IMG/VR virus record: IMGVR_UViG_3300045922_000020
Span: 1 to 50,933 of that record
DNA length: 50,933 bases
From: a virus
Direction: 5' to 3' (one strand)
Shown here: in pieces, positions 1-50,933 of the stretch
How positions within the stretch are numbered: the stretch's first letter is position 1
Layout of the letters: each line of letters opens with the position of its first letter
Notes under the pieces: model-generated
The model's input: only the letters and a program-made list of their open reading frames with translations
What the model was told of the DNA's origin: nothing
The model's database searches: none
Made by a program: the position numbers and the translations under genes

Positions 1-24
1 ATGCAGAACACAGGAGAACCCGAC

Positions 25-636
25 ATGACTTCTCTGGACACCGTGATCGACAAGCTGCACACTCTGATGCAGTTTCCGCAACCGAATCTGCCCAGCCATC
101 TTCGCTGTGTGGAGGCCGCCGACCTGAGCGATGTGCTGTTCGAGCTTCGTCTTGTGGCAGCCCGCCGGGACGCCTCGGTGCCCTACGACCTCGACGCAGA
201 ACCGATGACGCACCGGGGCGTGGACTTCGGCGAAACGCTTTCCCGACAAGCGCAGTTTTCGGCCCGGACCTTCGGGCCGGGAGCGCGCACGAAGGGTGTC
301 ATCGACCACCTCCGCAAGGAGGTTGCCGAGGTCGAGAAGAATCCTTCCGACCTTCTCGAATGGATCGACGTGGCGATTCTCGCTTTCGACGGCGCGTGGC
401 GGCAGCTTGCCTACGGGGAGTTCGTGAAGGCCGAACCGCCCGAGACCGAGCAGGACTTCAACAAGCTCGCAGCGGTCATCTGCGGTCTCTACCTGATGAA
501 GCTGAGACGGAACCGGCAGCGGACTTGGCCTGACTGGCGCACGCAGTCGCCGGACAAGGCCATCGAGCACTACCGAACGAAGGATGAATCCTCGAATCGG
601 GACGTGGCCCACGGCGGCGGCGCGCTCGGCGGCTGA
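25..636 (+). CDS. DUF550-type dATP/dGTP pyrophosphohydrolase-like protein
   Basis: 203 aa. The central part (about residues 75-130) contains FSARTFGPG followed by an E-x3-E-x13-D helix pair (EVAEVEKNPSD...EWIDVAI), the all-alpha NTP pyrophosphohydrolase (MazG-like) signature of DUF550. Family members hydrolyse dNTPs to dNMP plus pyrophosphate, which suits a nucleotide-pool role beside the reductase and ThyX genes. An ATG also exists at position 1, but the ATG at 25 has an AGGAGA Shine-Dalgarno 7 nt upstream (12-17) and is preferred. The Gly-rich C-terminus is probably disordered. The gene is followed by a terminator. The family call is from motif recognition, and substrate specificity is inferred. 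Confidence 0.75.
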   Translation: MTSLDTVIDKLHTLMQFPQPNLPSHLRCVEAADLSDVLFELRLVAARRDASVPYDLDAEPMTHRGVDFGETLSRQAQFSARTFGPGARTKGVIDHLRKEVAEVEKNPSDLLEWIDVAILAFDGAWRQLAYGEFVKAEPPETEQDFNKLAAVICGLYLMKLRRNRQRTWPDWRTQSPDKAIEHYRTKDESSNRDVAHGGGALGG

Positions 637-678: not shown

Positions 679-725
679 GTGCATAGTCGGCGACTGTGCC
701 CGCTCACCCTCAACAGGAGAATCCG

Positions 726-3700
726 ATGATCTCGAACTCCCGCCCGACCTTTCCCATGCCGATCTGCGAGTCTATCTGGGATATGAAGTATCGTCTGAAG
801 GAGGCTGACGGCACGCCTGTCGACATGACGATGGAGGATACTTGGCGTCGGGTCGCTGGCGCTCTGGCCGAAGCCGAGAGACCTTCGGAACGAGCCGAAT
901 GGGCGCAGAAGTTCTTCGAGGCGATGGTCGACTTCAAGTTCATCCCAGCCGGTCGCATCCTCGCTGGCGCAGGCACGGGCAGGAACGTCACGCTTAGCAA
1001 CTGCCTTTCGGGCGAGACCCTGATCCTTACTGCCGAATATGGCCTCGTTGCCATTGGCGAGATTGCCGGGGAGACCGTTCACGTTCTCGTTGGCAGCGGG
1101 GATTGGGTTGCGGCGCCGATCAACTTGTTCGGCGAGCAGCCTGTCGTGCCGGTGACACTTCGTGGAGGCTACAATGGTCGCTTGCGCAAGACGATCCATG
1201 CGACTTCCAACCATCGCTGGATTCTCGCTGACGGCTCGGAGCGCACGACTGAACACCTCATCGCGGGAAACATGCTGAAGTTCGTTCGGCGCCGCAACGT
1301 GAAGGACACCCCCGACTATCGGGCGGGTGTCCGGCACGGCGTTGTCTATGGCGACGGAAGCCAACGCCCCGAAGGGGAGGTCAAGCTGCGCCTGTGCGGC
1401 GCGAAAGCGGTCCTGATCGACTTCTTTTCCGACTGGACGATCACCCGCCCGGAATCTTACGGAGGCGATCCCTGCGTTTACGGAGGCCGCCGCGAACAGC
1501 GTGACTTCGATCTGAAAGCCCTTCCCGTGGAGGGCGCCAGTGTGGAATACCTCACGGGGTTCCTGCGCGGCTGGATGGCGACTGACGGATGTGTCTCTGT
1601 CGGCAAAGCCCTCATTTCCTGCGGTGCGGAAGAAGCCGATTGGCTGAAACGATATGGGCCTGTTGCCGGTATGGAAGTCTCCTGCGCCACGAAACTCGGA
1701 GACGTTACGAATTACGGCCAGAGGAACAAATCGCTTTTCAATGTTCATTTCCATCGCTGGACAATGATCCCGGAGGATTTCCTGTTGGAAGCCCACCGAA
1801 CTCGGTTCGTCCCGATAGAGTATCATTGGATCGTGGAATCTGTCGGGGAGGTCGGAACGGTCGTTCCGGTTTACTGCCCGCGCGTCGTGACGACCGATTC
1901 GGTGCAACTCGATCTCGGCATCCACACGGGCCAGTGTTTCACGATGGGCACGATCCCCGACAGCATGGACGGGATTTTCACGCACCTTCGCGAGGCCGCC
2001 CTGACCATGCAACAAGGGGGCGGCATCGGCTATGATTTCTCTACCATTCGGCCCAAGGGCGCGCTCGTGAAGGGCGTGGCGGCCGACGCCAGCGGGCCGC
2101 TGACCTTCATGGACGTGTGGGATTCGATGTGCCGCACGGTCATGTCGGCCGGTTCCCGTCGAGGGGCCATGATGGCCACCATGCGCTGCGACCACCCCGA
2201 CATCGAAGCCTTCATCGAAGCCAAGGCCGACCCGAAGCGGCTCAGGATGTTCAACGTCTCGGTCCTCGTGACCGACGCCTTCATGGACGCCGTTCGCGAC
2301 GACAAGCCGTGGCGCTTGCACTTCGAGAACCGGCAAGGCGAGACGTTGAAGGAGAAGGTCGTCAGCGCCCGCGTCCTGTGGGAAAAGATCATGCGCTCGA
2401 CCTACGACTACGCCGAGCCGGGCGTGATCTTCATCGACCGCGTGAACGAGGCCCACAACCTGCGCTACCTCGAACGGATCGCCACGACGAACCCTTGCGG
2501 CGAGAAACCGATGGGGCCGTATGCCTCGTGCCTTCTCGGCTCGATCAACGCGACAGCCTTCGTCCGCGCCCCGTTCGGTGACGGCGCGATCTTCGACTTC
2601 CTTGCGATGAACAAGGTCGTCCGAACCGCAGTCCGCATGATGGACAACGTGGTCGATGTGGGCGGTTTCCCGTTGCCCGCCCAGCGCGAGAAGGCCGAAC
2701 AGGACCGGCAACTCGGCCTCGGCATCACGGGCCTTGCGGACGCTCTGGCGATGATGGACGTGATCTACGGTTCGGACGAGGCGGTCGAGGTGACTTCCGC
2801 GATCATGCGGGAGATCGCCTTGACGGCCTACGAGACCTCGGTCGCTCTTGCCGTCGAAAAGGGGGCCTTCCCCACGTTCCAAGCCGACAAGTTTCTGGCT
2901 CCGGGCACGTTCGCTTCGAGGCTGCCCGAAGACCTCAAGGACCGAATCCGGGAGTTCGGCCTTCGCAACTCGCTGCTGACCTCCATCGCGCCTACGGGCA
3001 CGATCAGCCTCGTGGCAGGGAATCTGTCCTCGGGGATCGAGCCTATCTTTGCGACGAACTACGAGCGGAAAGTCCTTCTGCCGGACGGAACGAGGAAGGC
3101 CGAGGTCGTTCAGGACTACGCCGTCTGGCTCTACCGCGACATGCTCGGCAACGTGGATGGCGCTTTGCCGCCCGCTTTCGTGACCGCGCAGACCATCACT
3201 CCCGAGGCCCACGTCAGGATGCAGGCCGCCGCGCAGGAGTGGGTCGACTCGTCGATCAGCAAGACCGTGAACGTGCCCGAAGACATCTCGTTCGAGAACT
3301 TCAAGGCCGTCTATCAGCTTGCCTACGACTCGGGCTGCAAGGGCTGCACGACCTATCGGCCGAACCCCGTCACGGGAAGCGTCCTGAGCGTCGTCGAGGA
3401 CAAGCCCAAGGCCGAGGCGCCGAAGCCCGTCGAGGCCGCTTCTGTGCCTTCCCGGAAAGTCGCAGAGGCCGTTCCGGCTCGTCCCGAGGCTCTGGCCGGG
3501 ACCACCTACAAGATCAAGTGGCCGCAGTCGCCGCACGCCATCTACATCACCATAAACGACATTGATGATGCAGGGGACGGCAGCGAGCATGACTGGACCG
3601 TGCGGCCGTTCGAGATCTTCATCAACTCGAAGAACCTCGATCACTACGCTTGGACCGTGGCGCTGACCCGCATGATCTCGGCGGTGTTCCGGCGCGGGGG

Positions 3701-3992
3701 CGACGTGTCCTTCGTGGCCGAGGAACTGAAGGCTGTGTTTGATCCCAAGGGCGGCGCGTGGGTGGACGGCAAGTATGTGCCTTCGCTGCTGGCGGCCATC
3801 GGCGGCGTGATCGAGAGGCACCTGAACGGCGGCGAAGCCCCTGCCCCTGAACCGGACGAGCAACTTGAGCTTTTCGGGTCGGGTGCGGTCGTCCCTTCGC
3901 CGGACCCGTGCCCGGCGTGCGGCAGTTTCAACCGCAAGCTGGAAAACGGCTGCTGGGTCTGCCTCGACTGCGGGCACTCGACGTGCGGTTGA
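726..3992 (+). CDS. nrdJ: Adenosylcobalamin-dependent (class II) ribonucleotide reductase with intein
   Basis: 1,088 aa precursor that would reduce ribonucleotides to deoxyribonucleotides using a B12-generated radical. Visible reductase signatures: LSN|CF at the intein junction (first redox Cys), NPCGEKP (radical Cys with Asn and Glu partners), a second redox Cys in YASCLLGSIN, the APTGTISLVAGN loop with SSGIEPIF, and a Cys-rich tail (CPACG...CWVCLDCGHSTCG) typical of class II C-termini. Residues 93-403 are an intein; removing it leaves about 777 aa, a normal NrdJ size. ATG at 726 is chosen over a GTG at 696 because AGGAGA lies 5 nt upstream. A promoter for the next gene overlaps its stop codon. 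A long antisense frame is a shadow. Confidence 0.95.
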   Translation: MISNSRPTFPMPICESIWDMKYRLKEADGTPVDMTMEDTWRRVAGALAEAERPSERAEWAQKFFEAMVDFKFIPAGRILAGAGTGRNVTLSNCLSGETLILTAEYGLVAIGEIAGETVHVLVGSGDWVAAPINLFGEQPVVPVTLRGGYNGRLRKTIHATSNHRWILADGSERTTEHLIAGNMLKFVRRRNVKDTPDYRAGVRHGVVYGDGSQRPEGEVKLRLCGAKAVLIDFFSDWTITRPESYGGDPCVYGGRREQRDFDLKALPVEGASVEYLTGFLRGWMATDGCVSVGKALISCGAEEADWLKRYGPVAGMEVSCATKLGDVTNYGQRNKSLFNVHFHRWTMIPEDFLLEAHRTRFVPIEYHWIVESVGEVGTVVPVYCPRVVTTDSVQLDLGIHTGQCFTMGTIPDSMDGIFTHLREAALTMQQGGGIGYDFSTIRPKGALVKGVAADASGPLTFMDVWDSMCRTVMSAGSRRGAMMATMRCDHPDIEAFIEAKADPKRLRMFNVSVLVTDAFMDAVRDDKPWRLHFENRQGETLKEKVVSARVLWEKIMRSTYDYAEPGVIFIDRVNEAHNLRYLERIATTNPCGEKPMGPYASCLLGSINATAFVRAPFGDGAIFDFLAMNKVVRTAVRMMDNVVDVGGFPLPAQREKAEQDRQLGLGITGLADALAMMDVIYGSDEAVEVTSAIMREIALTAYETSVALAVEKGAFPTFQADKFLAPGTFASRLPEDLKDRIREFGLRNSLLTSIAPTGTISLVAGNLSSGIEPIFATNYERKVLLPDGTRKAEVVQDYAVWLYRDMLGNVDGALPPAFVTAQTITPEAHVRMQAAAQEWVDSSISKTVNVPEDISFENFKAVYQLAYDSGCKGCTTYRPNPVTGSVLSVVEDKPKAEAPKPVEAASVPSRKVAEAVPARPEALAGTTYKIKWPQSPHAIYITINDIDDAGDGSEHDWTVRPFEIFINSKNLDHYAWTVALTRMISAVFRRGGDVSFVAEELKAVFDPKGGAWVDGKYVPSLLAAIGGVIERHLNGGEAPAPEPDEQLELFGSGAVVPSPDPCPACGSFNRKLENGCWVCLDCGHSTCG
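1002..1934 (+). other. Intein with LAGLIDADG homing endonuclease (within nrdJ)
   Basis: A 311-aa in-frame insertion. It begins with Cys1 in block A (CLSGETLILT). Block B is TIHATSNHRWIL, with the Thr and His expected for N-S acyl shift. Two LAGLIDADG-like motifs follow: YRAGVRHGVVYGDG and LTGFLRGWMATDG. A block-F-like stretch VPVYCPRVV precedes the end. The last residues are H-T-G-Q, followed by extein Cys+1 (CFTMG). The usual terminal His-Asn is missing: the end is Gly-Gln with a His three residues before it. Inteins ending in Gln are known, so splicing remains plausible. The insertion site is the codon of the reductase's redox-active cysteine, which doubles as the splicing nucleophile. Confidence 0.92.
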
Positions 3993-4076: not shown

Positions 4077-5180
4077 ATGACCCAACTCATGCAGGCTTCC
4101 CGCCAGTGGGCTTCGCGCCCGGCCGACGAGCGTTTCGTTTCGCTTCCCGACCTCTACAACGTGGTTCGCGATAATCGCGAGCGGTCGCTGGCCGCGTCGA
4201 TCAGCACGCGGAAGATCGAGTTTGCCCCGCACCCGGGCGACACCGCCAAGGGCCTTGTCGCGAACACGCCGGATCGCACCATGACCCCGACGAACTGGTC
4301 CTTTGGCCAGCTTGCGAACCTTGCCAGTGCCCCGGCGTCCTACCTGAAGCGCCTTCCCGCGCCGATGGTTGCCGACTGCGTGAACTACGGCCTCCGCTTC
4401 CTGCGTGATGCCGAGGACGTGGGCCTGCTGGCCTGTCAGGGCGCGAACGGCGAGATGGACGAACTCCGGGCCGCTACCGGGCCGCGCTATGGCCGCATCT
4501 GGAACGAAGAGATCGTCGGCGCGCTGATGCAGAAGTTCGGCGACGGCCGCACCGGCGATTTCCGCGTGCCCGGCGAGTTCGGCAAGAAGGTTCCGATCAC
4601 CAAGGACAACACGACGATCTACGGCTCCGACCGCGACATCTTCGTGTTCCTCGCCGACGAGGATCGCCGGATCGAGGTCGCCAACCGGCGCAACGGCCAG
4701 CCGGGGTCGCTCGCTCGCGGCTTCTTCGTGTGGAACTCCGAGGTCGGGGCGCAGTCCATCGGCGCGGCCTTCTTCCTGTTCGATTACGTCTGCAAGAACC
4801 GGATCGTGTGGGGCGTGCAGGAGTTCAAGGAGATCCGCCTGCGGCACACGTCCTCGGCCCCGGATCGCTGGCTGGAAGAAATCACGCCGGTCCTGACGCA
4901 GTATGCTCATGCTTCGGCCGAGCCGGTTGCGGAGACTATCCGGGCGGCGCAGGAGAAGAAGGTGGCCGACGACCTTGACGCCTTCCTCGCCAAGCGGTTC
5001 ACGAAGTCCGAAGCGACTGCGGTCAAGGCGGCGCATGAGCGCGAGGAAGGCCGCCCCATCGAGTCGGTGTGGGATGTCGTCACGGGCGTCACGGCGCACG
5101 CCAAGACCCTGCCCTATCAGGACGCCCGCGTGGCGTTCGAGCGGCAGGGCGGCGCGATCCTCGATCTGGTTGCGGCCTGA
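4077..5180 (+). CDS. DUF932 phage/plasmid-like protein
   Basis: 367 aa. The layout matches the DUF932 family often found on phages and plasmids: an N-terminal segment with TPTNWSFGQLANLASAP and ASYLKRLPAP, the central GPRYGRIWNEEIV, and FFVWNSEVGAQSIGAAFFLFDYVCKNRIVWG. The biochemical function of the family is not established; roles in plasmid or phage maintenance have been proposed. The start is fixed by AAAGGAGAA 8-10 nt upstream of ATG 4077. It is the first gene after a strong promoter with a hairpin leader, so it is probably well expressed. It is followed by the first copy of the 56-nt hairpin element. Confidence 0.82.
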   Translation: MTQLMQASRQWASRPADERFVSLPDLYNVVRDNRERSLAASISTRKIEFAPHPGDTAKGLVANTPDRTMTPTNWSFGQLANLASAPASYLKRLPAPMVADCVNYGLRFLRDAEDVGLLACQGANGEMDELRAATGPRYGRIWNEEIVGALMQKFGDGRTGDFRVPGEFGKKVPITKDNTTIYGSDRDIFVFLADEDRRIEVANRRNGQPGSLARGFFVWNSEVGAQSIGAAFFLFDYVCKNRIVWGVQEFKEIRLRHTSSAPDRWLEEITPVLTQYAHASAEPVAETIRAAQEKKVADDLDAFLAKRFTKSEATAVKAAHEREEGRPIESVWDVVTGVTAHAKTLPYQDARVAFERQGGAILDLVAA

Positions 5181-5189
5181 TCGAGGTCT

Positions 5190-5245
5190 GGGGCGGAAGG
5201 CTCAGGACTGAAGCGAAACCCATCGTTCTCTCGGCCCTCCGCCCC
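5190..5245 (+). repeat. 56-nt hairpin element, copy 1
   Basis: 5190-5202 (GGGGCGGAAGGCT) pairs with 5233-5245 (GGCCCTCCGCCCC), a 13-bp stem with one mismatch and one G-U. The loop carries GAAACCCA at element positions 26-33. Copy 2 at 5783-5838 has the same length, the same first 15 nt and the same GAAACCCA position. It starts 10 nt after the DUF932 gene and ends 29 nt before the next ATG. No U-tract follows. Confidence 0.75.
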
Positions 5246-5274
5246 CACGCAACTTCAACCCCATGAGGTGATCC

Positions 5275-5778
5275 ATGCCTGCGAAACTGAAACCCTTGCC
5301 GCAGATCAGCGTTGCCGATTTCGCCCGCAAGGCAACGGAAGGCGCGAAGAACGCCGAAGACGCGGCCAAGGCGCTGCTGGCGATGGCAAAAGCCGATCCT
5401 GACCTCTACCGGAAGATCATGGAGCCTTACGAGTTCTCGGCCTGCCGGGACGCCATTGACCGCCTTCGCCTGAACGAGCGCGCCGCGATCTGGAAAGCCG
5501 CGCAAGGAGAAACGAGGTCGAACACAAGCGTTCGGGCGCTCGCTCGTGCCAACACCTACACACTTCTCGACTTCCCGTTGCCTTCCGGCACACGGCTTGG
5601 CGATGCGACGGTTTCCGACTTGACGGACGCCATCGGCGTCTATCGGGCACAGGCGAGCGACATGGCCCGCAAGGCGCGGTTCCTCGAACTTGTCTGCGGC
5701 AGGCTGAAGGAGGGTCAGCGGGTCTCGGAAGCCCTGACCCCGAAGGAATTGGAGGATGTCCAGAAGGAAGTCCTCTGA
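5275..5778 (+). CDS. Hypothetical protein between paired hairpin elements
   Basis: 167 aa, not recognised. Mostly predicted helical: an Ala/Lys-rich N-terminal half (ARKATEGAKNAEDAAKALLAMAKADPDLY), a charged central helix, then a second helical C-terminal half ending in a Lys/Glu-rich helix. No membrane segment, signal peptide or Cys motif. The start is supported by GAGGTGATCC directly upstream. The gene is bracketed by two copies of a 56-nt hairpin element, an arrangement not seen around any other gene here. It could be a nucleic-acid-binding or adaptor protein, but nothing in the sequence proves this. Confidence 0.75.
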   Translation: MPAKLKPLPQISVADFARKATEGAKNAEDAAKALLAMAKADPDLYRKIMEPYEFSACRDAIDRLRLNERAAIWKAAQGETRSNTSVRALARANTYTLLDFPLPSGTRLGDATVSDLTDAIGVYRAQASDMARKARFLELVCGRLKEGQRVSEALTPKELEDVQKEVL

Positions 5779-5782
5779 TTCA

Positions 5783-5838
5783 GGGGCGGAAGGCTCATCG
5801 GGCGTTTGAAACCCAGAACACGAGCAGCCTTCCGCCCC
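5783..5838 (+). repeat. 56-nt hairpin element, copy 2
   Basis: 5783-5795 (GGGGCGGAAGGCT) pairs perfectly over 13 bp with 5826-5838 (AGCCTTCCGCCCC). GAAACCCA is at element positions 26-33, as in copy 1, while the remaining loop sequence differs. Constant stem, constant central loop motif and constant length with diverged flanks suggest selection on structure. Confidence 0.8.
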
Positions 5839-5849
5839 ACCTTTCTTCC

Positions 5850-5995
5850 GATCTCCGCCTGCGGAAACCGCAACACCAGCGAAACTCGGTCATAGATCGA
5901 ATCTGTGGACGGAGATCAGAGGGAAGGCCATCGCGGAAGCGAAAATCACTGATTCGGCGCCGACCCTCTGCCTCCTGCTACCGCAGCGAAACCCA
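5850..5995 (+). other. Chain of further hairpins upstream of the IS110-like gene
   Basis: This 146-nt segment has no ORF. GATCTCCG (5850-5857) pairs with CGGAGATC (5910-5917); inside are a small hairpin TGCGG-AAA-CCGCA (5860-5872) and a loop GCGAAACTCG. CAGAGGG (5917-5923) pairs with CCCTCTG (5964-5970), with GCGAAAATCA in its loop. GCGAAACCCA recurs at 5986-5995. Together with copy 2 of the 56-nt element, almost the whole 239-nt gap (5779-6017) can fold, with GAAA-containing loops. This may be a structured RNA or an elaborate leader; no promoter was recognised. Confidence 0.5.
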
Positions 5996-6017
5996 AGCAA
6001 CCACCGAGGTAATTCCC

Positions 6018-6839
6018 ATGAACATCCATGCCCCCATCCACGAAGCGCCGGTCTACCATCAAGAGTTTGAGGCCCACCGAGAGGACGAAGATCGGCGCTT
6101 CGCGGACCCTGCCGTTGCCGAGATCGTCGAACTCTGGCGGCAACGGCAGGACTTTCACCGTGCGGAGAAGCGCCTGACGCTTCAGATCAAGGCCATCCTT
6201 CGCCGCTTCACTGACGGCGACAAGGATGCTGCGGACAAGCTCTACAAGCTCGTTTCTGCCGGTGTCGCCGAACAGGATGTGATGATGGCTGTTCTTCCGC
6301 TTCGGGCCGCACAGGACGGCATCCGGCAGTCCCGTGAGGGCATCGAGAAGACCCTGCGCAAGCTCGCGGTCAGACTGCCGATCTATGCCTGCTTCGTCAG
6401 GGACGTGAAAGGCTTCGGCGAACTCGGCCTTGCGGCCACGGTCGGCGAGATCGGCGACCTGTCGGCCTACCGGAGCGTGTCGGCGGTCTGGAAGCGCGCG
6501 GGTCTCGCCGTCATTGGCGAAGGCCGCCAGCGCAAGGTCGCGGGTGACGCGGCGTTCGAACACGGCTACAGCCCCGTGCGCAGGTCGGTTTTCTGGACGC
6601 TGGCGGACTCGATGCTCAAGTCTCAAGGAAAGGGCGAAGACGCCGGTCCCTATCGGCGCATCTACGACGCTCGCAAAGCCTACGAGCGCCCGCGCGTTCA
6701 GTCTGATGCCCACGCCCACAACCGCGCGATGCGGGTCATGTTCAAGGCTCTGCTGAAAGACATGGCCGTCGCGTGGAAAGCCCTCCCCGGCCAAGCTCGC
6801 GTCGAAAACCACACCAGTCACGCTGGGGAGGGCAACTGA
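6018..6839 (+). CDS. IS110-like Transposase_20-domain protein lacking the RuvC-like domain
   Basis: 273 aa. The N-terminal 60 residues are polar and acidic. Residues about 35-130 form a coiled-coil-like helical region. Residues about 130-260 match the C-terminal half of IS110-family transposases: VKGFGELGLAATVGEIGD (helix-hairpin-helix), WKRAGLAV, then SPVRRSVFWTLADSML and GPYRRIYDARKAYE. The N-terminal DEDD/RuvC-like catalytic domain of genuine IS110 transposases is absent, and no clear catalytic Ser is seen at the usual place after AGL. It is therefore unlikely to be a mobile element and more likely a domesticated DNA- or RNA-binding protein. A 239-nt structured gap lies upstream, and the next small gene starts on its stop codon. 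Confidence 0.7.
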   Translation: MNIHAPIHEAPVYHQEFEAHREDEDRRFADPAVAEIVELWRQRQDFHRAEKRLTLQIKAILRRFTDGDKDAADKLYKLVSAGVAEQDVMMAVLPLRAAQDGIRQSREGIEKTLRKLAVRLPIYACFVRDVKGFGELGLAATVGEIGDLSAYRSVSAVWKRAGLAVIGEGRQRKVAGDAAFEHGYSPVRRSVFWTLADSMLKSQGKGEDAGPYRRIYDARKAYERPRVQSDAHAHNRAMRVMFKALLKDMAVAWKALPGQARVENHTSHAGEGN

Positions 6840-6940
6840 TGTTCTGGATTCTTCACCTCTGCGCTGTGCTGTTCTTCCTGCCTGCGCTGTTCATCACGAT
6901 CCCGCTGCACATCATCGCGGCGAACCAGAAGAGGCGCTAG
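6839..6940 (+). CDS. Small single-pass membrane protein
   Basis: 33 aa. The ATG overlaps the previous stop (TGATG), and GGGGAGGG lies about 6 nt upstream. Residues 2-28 are almost entirely hydrophobic (FWILHLCAVLFFLPALFIT...IIAA), followed by a basic end NQKRR, as in a one-helix inner-membrane peptide with a cytoplasmic tail. Function unknown. Confidence 0.6.
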   Translation: MFWILHLCAVLFFLPALFITIPLHIIAANQKRR

Positions 6941-6996
6941 AACCGGAGTCCCGAGCCTGCTAGACTCTGCCCACCACAAACGAAAGGAGCGGCCCC

Positions 6997-7188
6997 ATGT
7001 TCGTTTTCCGCACGACCGAAGGCATCGTCATCGGTCCCTTCCCTTCCTATGACGCCGCAAAAGCGTGGGCTTCGCGGTCTATCTGGGCCAACCAGATCGA
7101 CGACATCTATACGGTCCTTCCGCCTCGCGAGGACATGATTGCCGCGCGCAACCAGTATGTTTACCCCGATTTGCGCGCTGCCTGCTGA
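6997..7188 (+). CDS. Hypothetical protein
   Basis: 63 aa, not recognised. It begins MFVFRTTEGIVIGPFPSYDAAKAWA, a pattern like a small alpha/beta domain that presents incoming data (many phage proteins share 'GPF..YD.A..WA'). CGAAAGGAGCGG upstream sets the start. It is the first of a run of four overlapping small genes leading into thyX: its stop overlaps the next ATG (TGATG). Confidence 0.7.
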   Translation: MFVFRTTEGIVIGPFPSYDAAKAWASRSIWANQIDDIYTVLPPREDMIAARNQYVYPDLRAAC

Positions 7189-8904: not shown

Positions 8905-8930
8905 AGAATCGAGCCGAGGAAGGCTCAATG

Positions 8931-9867: not shown

Positions 9868-10164
9868 ATGGCGAAGAAGAAGAATCACGACGATGACGAC
9901 GACCTGATCGGCAAGGTAGGAGACAACTCCGGGGACGTTGCTACGGAAGAACTTCGGCAGCTTGTTGAACGCTGGGAATCGCTGGAAAGCGACAAGAAGG
10001 CGGCTTCGGCCGAACAGAAGGACGTGATGGCCGAAGCCAAGGCCCGAGGCTACGACACCAAGGCCCTGCGGAAGCTGCTCGCCGAACGGAAGCGCGACCC
10101 CGACGAAGTTGAGGAAGAGCGCGCCGTTCTGGACCTCTACCGCGCCGCCCTCGGGATGGCCTGA
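9868..10164 (+). CDS. GapR-like (DUF2312) nucleoid-associated protein
   Basis: 98 aa. After a Lys/Asp-rich start, residues 18-98 match the DUF2312/GapR domain: VGDNSGDVATEELRQLVER, LESDKKAASAEQKDVMAEAKARGYD and ALRKLLAERKRDPDEVEEE. GapR is an alphaproteobacterial protein that clamps overtwisted AT-rich DNA ahead of moving polymerases. A phage copy could organise phage DNA or help topoisomerase access during replication (inference). AAGGAG precedes ATG 9868. This is one of the better indicators of an alphaproteobacterial host. Confidence 0.88.
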   Translation: MAKKKNHDDDDDLIGKVGDNSGDVATEELRQLVERWESLESDKKAASAEQKDVMAEAKARGYDTKALRKLLAERKRDPDEVEEERAVLDLYRAALGMA

Positions 10165-15691: not shown

Positions 15692-15892
15692 TTAGGGCGA
15701 GTAGATGACGTTGATCGCAGCTTCGGTGACGCCTTCACTATACGTGATGACGTTGATCGCAGCTTCGGTGACGCCTTCACTATACGTGATGATGTTTAGG
15801 CCCTGCTCGCTCAGGAACAGTTCGTAGTTCAGCGGCGGCCCGTTGTCGATCCGCCTGCTCGACAATATCGCCATGAGCGTCGGTATGGTCAT
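15692..15892 (-). CDS. Small protein with exact 14-residue duplication
   Basis: 66 aa. Start ATG 15892 overlaps the stop of the DUF2793 gene. The C-terminal half contains TYSEGVTEAAINVI twice in tandem (42-nt identical DNA units), preceded and followed by partial copies (NIITYSEG..., NVIYSP). Probably a tail-fibre accessory, perhaps a short fibrous extension. No family recognised. Confidence 0.6.
   Translation of the reverse strand: MTIPTLMAILSSRRIDNGPPLNYELFLSEQGLNIITYSEGVTEAAINVITYSEGVTEAAINVIYSP
15704..15787 (-). repeat. 42-bp tandem repeat (2 identical copies)
   Basis: Copies at 15704-15745 and 15746-15787 are identical over 42 bp and in phase with the reading frame (14 codons), so copy-number change would lengthen or shorten the protein without a frameshift. 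Confidence 0.85.
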
Positions 15893-50513: not shown

Positions 50514-50562
50514 CCCTAGTCGTAAAAGCCCCAAGGCGGGAATACCTGACCGCCTTACCGCC

Positions 50563-50652
50563 TATTGACTGGACAGTCAGTCAAAATAGCCTGACCGCCT
50601 GACCGCTTATTGACTGGACAGTCAGTCAGAATAGCCTGACCGCCTGATCGCC
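50563..50652 (+). repeat. 45-bp direct repeat (two copies) with palindromic core
   Basis: Copies at 50563-50607 and 50608-50652 differ at a few bases. Each contains TTGACTG-GACAGT-CAGTCAA (or A to G at the end in copy 2), which can also pair as TGACTG-GA-CAGTCA. The repeat grades into the 8-bp array. Confidence 0.75.
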
Positions 50653-50933
50653 TGACCGCCTGACCGCCTGACCGCCTGACCGCCTGACCGCCTGACCGCC
50701 TGACCGCCTGACCGCCTGACCGCCTGACCGCCTGACAGCCTGACCGCCTGACCGCCTGACCGCCTGACCGCCTGACCGCCTGACCGCCTGACCGCCTGAC
50801 CGCCTGACCGCCTGACCGCCTGACCGACTGACCGCCTGACCGCCTGACCGCCTGACCGCCTGACCGCCTGACCGCCTGACCGCCTGACCGCCTGACCGCC
50901 TGACCGCCTGACCGCCTGACCGCCTGACCGCCT
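50635..50933 (+). repeat. 8-bp tandem array (CCTGACCG), about 37 copies
   Basis: Nearly perfect CCTGACCG units from 50635 to the window end, with three single-base variants (T at about 50648, A at 50737, A at 50827). The plus strand has TGA stops in every frame. The minus strand is open in all frames and would give a repeating RSGGQAVR, but has no start codon. The window stops inside the array, so true length is unknown. Confidence 0.9.

What the first reader, a model, noticed from the sequence alone, without database searches (positions are those of the whole stretch)
5190..5838. Two 56-nt hairpin elements with identical architecture flank an unknown gene
5190-5245 and 5783-5838 are each exactly 56 nt, share the first 15 nt (GGGGCGGAAGGCTCA), form a 13-bp stem and hold GAAACCCA at positions 26-33. 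The other loop bases have diverged and stem differences are mostly pairing-compatible. That pattern indicates selection for RNA or DNA structure. A 10-nt piece (GGAAGGCTCA) recurs before another hairpin at 8918. I know of no named element with this form. It might be a phage-specific structured RNA, a protein-binding mRNA element or a processing site.
Basis: partly seen in the sequence, partly recalled or inferred. Interest (0 to 1): 0.75.

Follow-up and report, generated by a model that had tools for sequence, protein, structure and literature searches.

The report
Phage TIGR-TasA hairpin guide-RNA array
The two hairpins belong to a set of at least five small guide-RNA units that surround, and partly lie inside, a phage gene for a TasA protein, so this looks like an RNA-guided DNA-binding system of the TIGR-Tas type described in 2025, with two features (units inside the protein-coding gene and a conserved partner gene) that I did not find described.

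Summary
Each 56-nt hairpin has the layout of a TIGR stem-loop guide unit: box C (YCA), 9-nt spacer A, box D (YG/CA), 4-nt loop, box C (CCA), 9-nt spacer B, box D, closed by a variable palindromic stem. The window holds five such units (5190-5245, 5783-5838, 5917-5970, 6042-6101, 6777-6836), all on the + strand. A covariance model built only from other phages' units ranks exactly these five first in the whole window. The gene at 6018-6839 is a nuclease-less Tas protein (TasA): sequence match to solved TasR (E 2.7e-18), and its ten best PDB fold matches are all TasR/TasH. It is thus a TIGR-TasA stem-loop system (Faure et al. 2025). Two features go beyond what I could read there. Two units lie inside the tasA coding sequence, over its disordered ends, and relatives carry whole arrays in frame. 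The 'unknown gene' 5275-5778 has homologues beside tas in nearly all relatives checked and looks like a conserved partner. The piece at 8918 is not a unit. Targets, partner function and guide expression remain untested.

The parts
5190..5245 (+). Stem-loop guide unit 1: stem 5190-5201/5234-5245; box C TCA 5202-5204; spacer A GGACTGAAG 5205-5213; box D CG 5214-5215; loop AAAC; box C CCA 5220-5222; spacer B TCGTTCTCT 5223-5231; box D CG 5232-5233
   Evidence: covariance model hit E 0.0019
5275..5778 (+). Companion gene (167 aa, all-helical model, function unknown)
   Evidence: HMM homologues in 26 of 29 tas loci and in 4 of 4 further cultured phages; other members match phrog_4604, no Pfam match; model
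5783..5838 (+). Stem-loop guide unit 2: perfect 13-bp closure; box C TCA 5795-5797; spacer A TCGGGCGTT 5798-5806; box D TG 5807-5808; loop AAAC; box C CCA 5813-5815; spacer B GAACACGAG 5816-5824; box D CA 5825-5826
   Evidence: model hit E 6.6e-6
5850..5917 (+). Possible degenerate unit or hairpin (GATCTCCG...CGGAGATC), low confidence
   Evidence: read; not recovered by the covariance model
5917..5970 (+). Stem-loop guide unit 3: box C CCA 5928-5930; spacer A TCGCGGAAG; box D CG; loop AAAA; box C TCA; spacer B CTGATTCGG; box D CG
   Evidence: model hit E 1.5e-4 at 5914-5973; fold z only -1.65
5972..6012 (+). Possible degenerate half unit (CG AAAC CCA AGCAACCAC CG) just before the tasA ribosome-binding site
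   Evidence: read; edge box C missing; not recovered by the model
6018..6839 (+). tasA: 273-aa Nop-domain (IS110 C-terminal-like) protein without a nuclease domain
   Evidence: phrog_4285 E 7e-19; PDB 9mty TasR E 2.7e-18; profile also hits TasH 5e-25; fold search top 10 all TasR/TasH; model pLDDT 86
6042..6101 (+). Stem-loop guide unit 4, inside the 5' end of the tasA coding sequence; 13-bp stem; spacers TCAAGAGTT / CCGAGAGGA
   Evidence: z -4.6; model hit E 0.0077; no in-frame ATG/GTG/TTG between 5463 and 6018 or between 6018 and 6279
6777..6836 (+). Stem-loop guide unit 5, inside the 3' end of the tasA coding sequence, ending just before the stop; 11-bp stem; spacers AGCTCGCGT / CACCAGTCA
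   Evidence: z -5.7; model hit E 9.3e-8

Best explanation
The locus is a TIGR-TasA system with a stem-loop guide array. Shown by sequence: five guide units with the TIGR stem-loop layout, a TasA protein gene, and a conserved companion gene. Inferred by analogy with the published systems: a transcript across 5190-6836 is cut between units by a host RNase; a TasA dimer holds each unit by its two box C/box D pairs; spacers A and B then pair with opposite strands of an 18-bp DNA site (spacer A followed by the reverse complement of spacer B). Because TasA has no nuclease domain, it most likely binds and blocks or bends its target rather than cutting it, probably on a competing mobile element or the host. 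The companion protein is probably an accessory partner. Units 4 and 5 also encode the disordered tails of TasA, so excision or binding of these units would break or mask the tasA message, a plausible (untested) negative feedback.
For: Unit layout with exact 9/9-nt spacers. A covariance model built without window units ranks the five window units 1-5. Motif-only selection (no stem required) in 26 tas loci: 169 hits on the tas strand, 144 with at least 6 of 8 closing pairs; on the opposite strand 9 hits, 1 with a stem. Covariation over 64 motif-only units 0.559 against 0.174 +/- 0.013 in shuffles, 0 of 500; slid registers 0.19 or less. The edge C-G pair replaced by U-A in window unit 2 recurs in L061. 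TasA. Model low in confidence only at residues 1-30, about 170-180 and 255-273; the two ends coincide with units 4 and 5. Companion gene. Published architecture and mechanism: PMC12045711.
Against: No transcript, processing or binding data. Four target patterns searched in IMG/VR gave 3, 4, 1 and 2 hits, about what chance would give, and there is no self-target, so guide function is not shown by a target. The window has only 5 units, some with variant boxes (TCA, CA), and possible decayed units between them, so the array may be partly degenerate.
Confidence: 0.93

Rival explanations
1. The hairpins are transcription terminators or simple mRNA stability/processing hairpins around phage genes, unrelated to guides.
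For: GC-rich stems lie between genes; they fold better than shuffles.
Against: No terminator-like site found in 4900-7000; conserved boxes and fixed 9-nt spacers in the loop; two units are inside a coding sequence; strand and location follow tas in dozens of phages.
Confidence: 0.02
2. The locus is a degraded IS110-type insertion sequence with its bridge RNA (a transposon remnant), the hairpins being bridge-RNA loops or inverted repeats.
For: The protein carries an IS110 C-terminal-like domain and is called 'transposase' in PHROGs and in several mycobacteriophage records.
Against: Fold and sequence matches favour TasR/TasH over IS621 by a wide margin; no DEDD catalytic domain; arrays of up to 13 independent units on both sides of the gene instead of one two-loop bridge RNA; the gene is kept across diverse phages with a companion gene.
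Confidence: 0.03
3. The guides are decayed in this phage: TasA has been co-opted to bind the remaining hairpins in its own and the companion's mRNA as an autoregulator, without DNA targeting.
For: Few units, variant boxes, possible half units at 5850-5917 and 5972-6012, two units inside tasA, no target found.
Against: Box pairing, exact 9-nt spacing and near-perfect stems are kept in units 2, 4 and 5; spacers differ between all units, as expected for guides.
Confidence: 0.12

Closest known systems
TIGR-TasA systems with stem-loop arrays (Faure et al., Science 2025, PMC12045711, section 9, Fig. 7B)
   Same: Nuclease-less Nop-domain protein; [quoted passage not shown] variable palindromic edges; arrays around the gene, mostly in mobile elements
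   Different: Units inside the tas coding sequence and a conserved helical companion gene are not mentioned in the main text; its supplement could not be read here
TIGR-TasR / TasH with dual-repeat arrays (same paper; PDB 9mty, 9vzx, 21kl)
   Same: Homologous Tas core, same box C/D logic, 9-nt spacers
   Different: No RuvC or HNH domain here; stem-loop units instead of edge/loop repeats
TIGR-TasParB operons (same paper, section 44)
   Same: tasA in an operon with a second gene
   Different: That partner is ParB-like and goes with dual-repeat arrays; here the partner model is all-helical, without a Pfam match, with stem-loop arrays
IS110-family transposase with bridge RNA (IS621, PDB 8wt6)
   Same: Related RNA-binding domain; a two-spacer internal loop read against both DNA strands
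   Different: No DEDD recombinase domain, no donor loop, many separate units
Box C/D snoRNP (Nop5)
   Same: Nop fold, two guides between boxes C and D
   Different: No L7Ae-type kink-turn or fibrillarin seen; weak fold match only (E 0.6)

Membership tests
TIGR-Tas (Tas protein) | Nop-domain protein homologous to Tas | tested here: met
   phmmer to TasR 9mty E 2.7e-18; profile to TasH E 5e-25; Foldseek top 10 all TasR/TasH
TIGR-Tas (TasA subtype) | No RuvC or HNH nuclease domain | tested here: met
   273 aa; match begins after the TasR RuvC part (query 105-258 to chain 153-298); all-helical coiled-coil model; no nuclease family in Pfam
[quoted passage not shown]
   5 units, spacers exactly 9 nt
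TIGR stem-loop array | Variable but palindromic edges forming a stem | tested here: met
   covariation 0.559 against 0.174 in relatives
TIGR stem-loop array | Array adjacent to the tas gene, same strand | tested here: met
   all five units at 5190-6836, + strand
TIGR stem-loop array | Transcription and processing into single units bound by TasA | not testable with these tools
   needs RNA sequencing and pull-down
TIGR stem-loop array | Spacer-directed DNA targeting | tested here: inconclusive
   no self-target; IMG/VR hits at about chance level
TIGR dual-repeat array | Identical alternating edge and loop repeats of 8-12 nt | tested here: not met
   edges differ from unit to unit and are palindromic
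IS110 transposase | N-terminal DEDD (RuvC-like) catalytic domain | tested here: not met
   no such domain in 273 aa; IS621 only at E 0.27 and 0.08

The most novel reading that the evidence does not exclude
Stem-loop TIGR-TasA is a two-gene phage system in which the guide array is partly or wholly protein-coding: units lie in frame inside tasA (in the window at both ends; in relatives as long N-terminal extensions whose start codon overlaps the companion's stop), so that guide maturation and TasA synthesis compete for the same transcript, and the helical companion is a dedicated partner of TasA.
Probability: 0.45. Interest if true: 0.78.

Novelty: new member of a known kind. Interest (0 to 1): 0.62.

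Why it matters
Stem-loop TIGR arrays were described in 2025 from mostly unassigned metagenome contigs, with unknown natural targets and unknown TasA function. This window and its relatives tie the system to phages and prophages of culturable hosts: Mycobacterium smegmatis phages (BPBiebs31, Rich), Gordonia phages (Morrissey, LonelyBoi) and prophage-like loci in Rhizobium, Metarhizobium and Shinella genomes. That makes targets and function testable in laboratory strains. A conserved companion gene gives a new handle on what nuclease-less TasA does, and guide units inside the effector's own coding sequence raise a directly testable question about autoregulation.

Tried and rejected
Exact pattern GGAAGGCTCA-N5..15-GAAACCC in IMG/VR gave 29 places, none with the hairpin: chance or unrelated families. 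Protein searches with a single window protein in IMG/VR found nothing; the alignment of tas proteins was needed. The 8918 hairpin was considered a unit and rejected. Terminators rejected. Rfam: no match. Self-targeting tested and not seen. Target patterns for four units in viral contigs: about chance. First pair count used a structure shifted by one column (my error); repeated correctly. Companion protein fold: no PDB or viral structure match. The reciprocal search with the companion gene in species genomes found three loci, all with tas and units, but at least one is the same prophage as an IMG/VR locus (Metarhizobium album, contig length 44450, L080 = L045), so it is only a partial control. 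ParB identity of the companion was considered and rejected (all-helical model, no Pfam match).

Full report
Observation. The two 56-nt elements are as described. Unit 2 (5783-5838) closes with 13 perfect pairs; unit 1 (5190-5245) has one mismatch and one wobble. Both fold better than shuffles (z -3.2 and -5.7). No terminator-like site lies in 4900-7000 and no Rfam family matches the window.

What the neighbours say. The gene at 6018-6839 matches phage families called 'transposase' (phrog_4285) and weakly the IS110 C-terminal domain. Its relatives in Rhizobium phage RHph_X2_25 and Gordonia phage Morrissey are surrounded by similar hairpins with GAAACCCA-like cores. This is the architecture of TIGR-Tas stem-loop arrays: two 8-12-nt spacers, each between box C and box D, with variable palindromic edges, beside a Nop-domain Tas protein (PMC12045711, sections 8 and 9).

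The units. Read this way, each element is YCA - 9 nt - YG - 4 nt - YCA (CCA in four of the five) - 9 nt - YG/CA, closed by a stem. A strict scan finds in the window the two reported units, a third at 5917-5970 and two more inside the tasA gene, at 6042-6101 and 6777-6836; shuffled windows give 0.53 hits on average. In 24 related IMG/VR loci the same scan finds about 160 units on the tas strand and 4 on the other. Without requiring a stem, 144 of 169 motif hits on the tas strand (26 loci) are closed by a stem, against 1 of 9 on the opposite strand. In 64 motif-only units the closing helix covaries strongly (0.559 against 0.174 +/- 0.013 shuffled, 0 of 500; slid registers at most 0.19). A covariance model from these 64 units, none from the window, ranks the five window units first to fifth in the whole 50.9 kb (E 9e-8 to 0.008; next match 0.099). 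In whole or partial genomes of other phages its matches lie around tas. The 8918 element is not a unit.

The protein. Alone, the 273-aa protein matches solved TasR at E 2.7e-18; a family profile also matches TasH (5e-25) and barely IS621 (0.27). The predicted model (pLDDT 86) has TasR and TasH structures as its ten best PDB matches, then IS621, then Nop5 and Prp31. The RuvC/HNH part is absent, so it is a TasA.

Units inside tasA. ATG 6018 is the only ATG/GTG/TTG start in the open frame before 6279, and the conserved core begins near residue 31, so unit 4 must be inside the coding sequence; unit 5 ends just before the stop. They encode residues of the two tails (11-26 and 256-271), where model confidence is low; a further low stretch lies near residues 170-180. 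The same holds elsewhere: annotated CDSs of Gordonia phage LonelyBoi gp46 (7 units) and Mycobacterium phage Rich gp50 (3 units) contain units. In 10 of 22 loci the whole stretch from the companion's stop to the Tas core is open in the tas frame (1 and 2 of 22 in the other frames). In seven of these (L041, L043, L055, L059, L062, L063, L064) an in-frame start overlaps or abuts the companion's stop; in L041, the closest relative, eight units lie in such an extension. In the window the frame is open too and CTG 5775-5777 overlaps the companion's TGA (5776-5778), but no standard start lies there. Units inside twelve tas CDSs prefer one codon phase (38:14:1); shared ancestry of units may inflate this.

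Companion gene. The 'unknown gene' 5275-5778 has HMM homologues beside tas in 26 of 29 loci, nearly always upstream, and in 4 of 4 further cultured phages. The HMM was iterated on these same loci, so the count is of recognisable homologues and not an independent statistic; the window-RHph similarity was seen before iteration (41.5% over 53 aa). Its model is all-helical and matches no known structure. It is not the ParB-like partner described for dual-repeat systems.

Mechanism. Shown: layout, covariation, homology, coding overlap. Taken from the published systems: processing into units, dimeric Tas binding through boxes C/D, pairing of spacers A and B with opposite strands of an 18-bp site. 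Inferred: binding without cutting, an accessory role of the companion, feedback through units 4 and 5. No natural target was found: window self-matches are no better than controls and exact A + 0-2 nt + rc(B) searches in IMG/VR gave chance-like numbers.

Novelty. The locus is a new member of stem-loop TIGR-TasA. The companion gene and the coding-embedded units are not mentioned in the main text that I searched; supplementary files could not be opened, so prior notice cannot be excluded. The closest phage by its neighbouring genes, Synechococcus virus S-ESS1, shares the flanking RNR, DUF932 and ThyX genes but gives no tas match and no unit, so the module is an accessory insertion.

Noticed in passing
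window 696-3992: The ribonucleotide reductase large subunit has about 316 residues inserted between its all-alpha and barrel domains (residues 97-413), beginning CLSGETLILTAEYGLV, which looks like an intein.
   Followed up: partly
window 1-636: dATP/dGTP pyrophosphohydrolase domain (PF04447, E 5e-18), a family linked from general knowledge to 2-aminoadenine (Z) DNA phages; no adenylosuccinate synthetase (PurZ-like) match in the contig, which may be incomplete.
   Followed up: partly
window 9868-10164: GapR-like DNA-binding protein encoded by the phage (PF10073, E 1e-26).
   Followed up: no
window 50545-50933: Contig end consists of about 35 head-to-tail copies of an 8-nt unit (CCGCCTGA), preceded by a 45-nt repeat.
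   Followed up: no
window 15704-15787: Perfect 42-nt tandem duplication.
   Followed up: no
L059 3301-3420, L061 3331-3456, L062 2674-2847, L076 3463-3522: Guide units sit in insertions in the middle of the Tas protein itself (columns present in only 11-21% of homologues in the first three).
   Followed up: partly
L079, L080, L081: Intact-looking companion-tas-array loci in Rhizobium esperanzae, Metarhizobium album and Shinella sumterensis genomes.
   Followed up: partly
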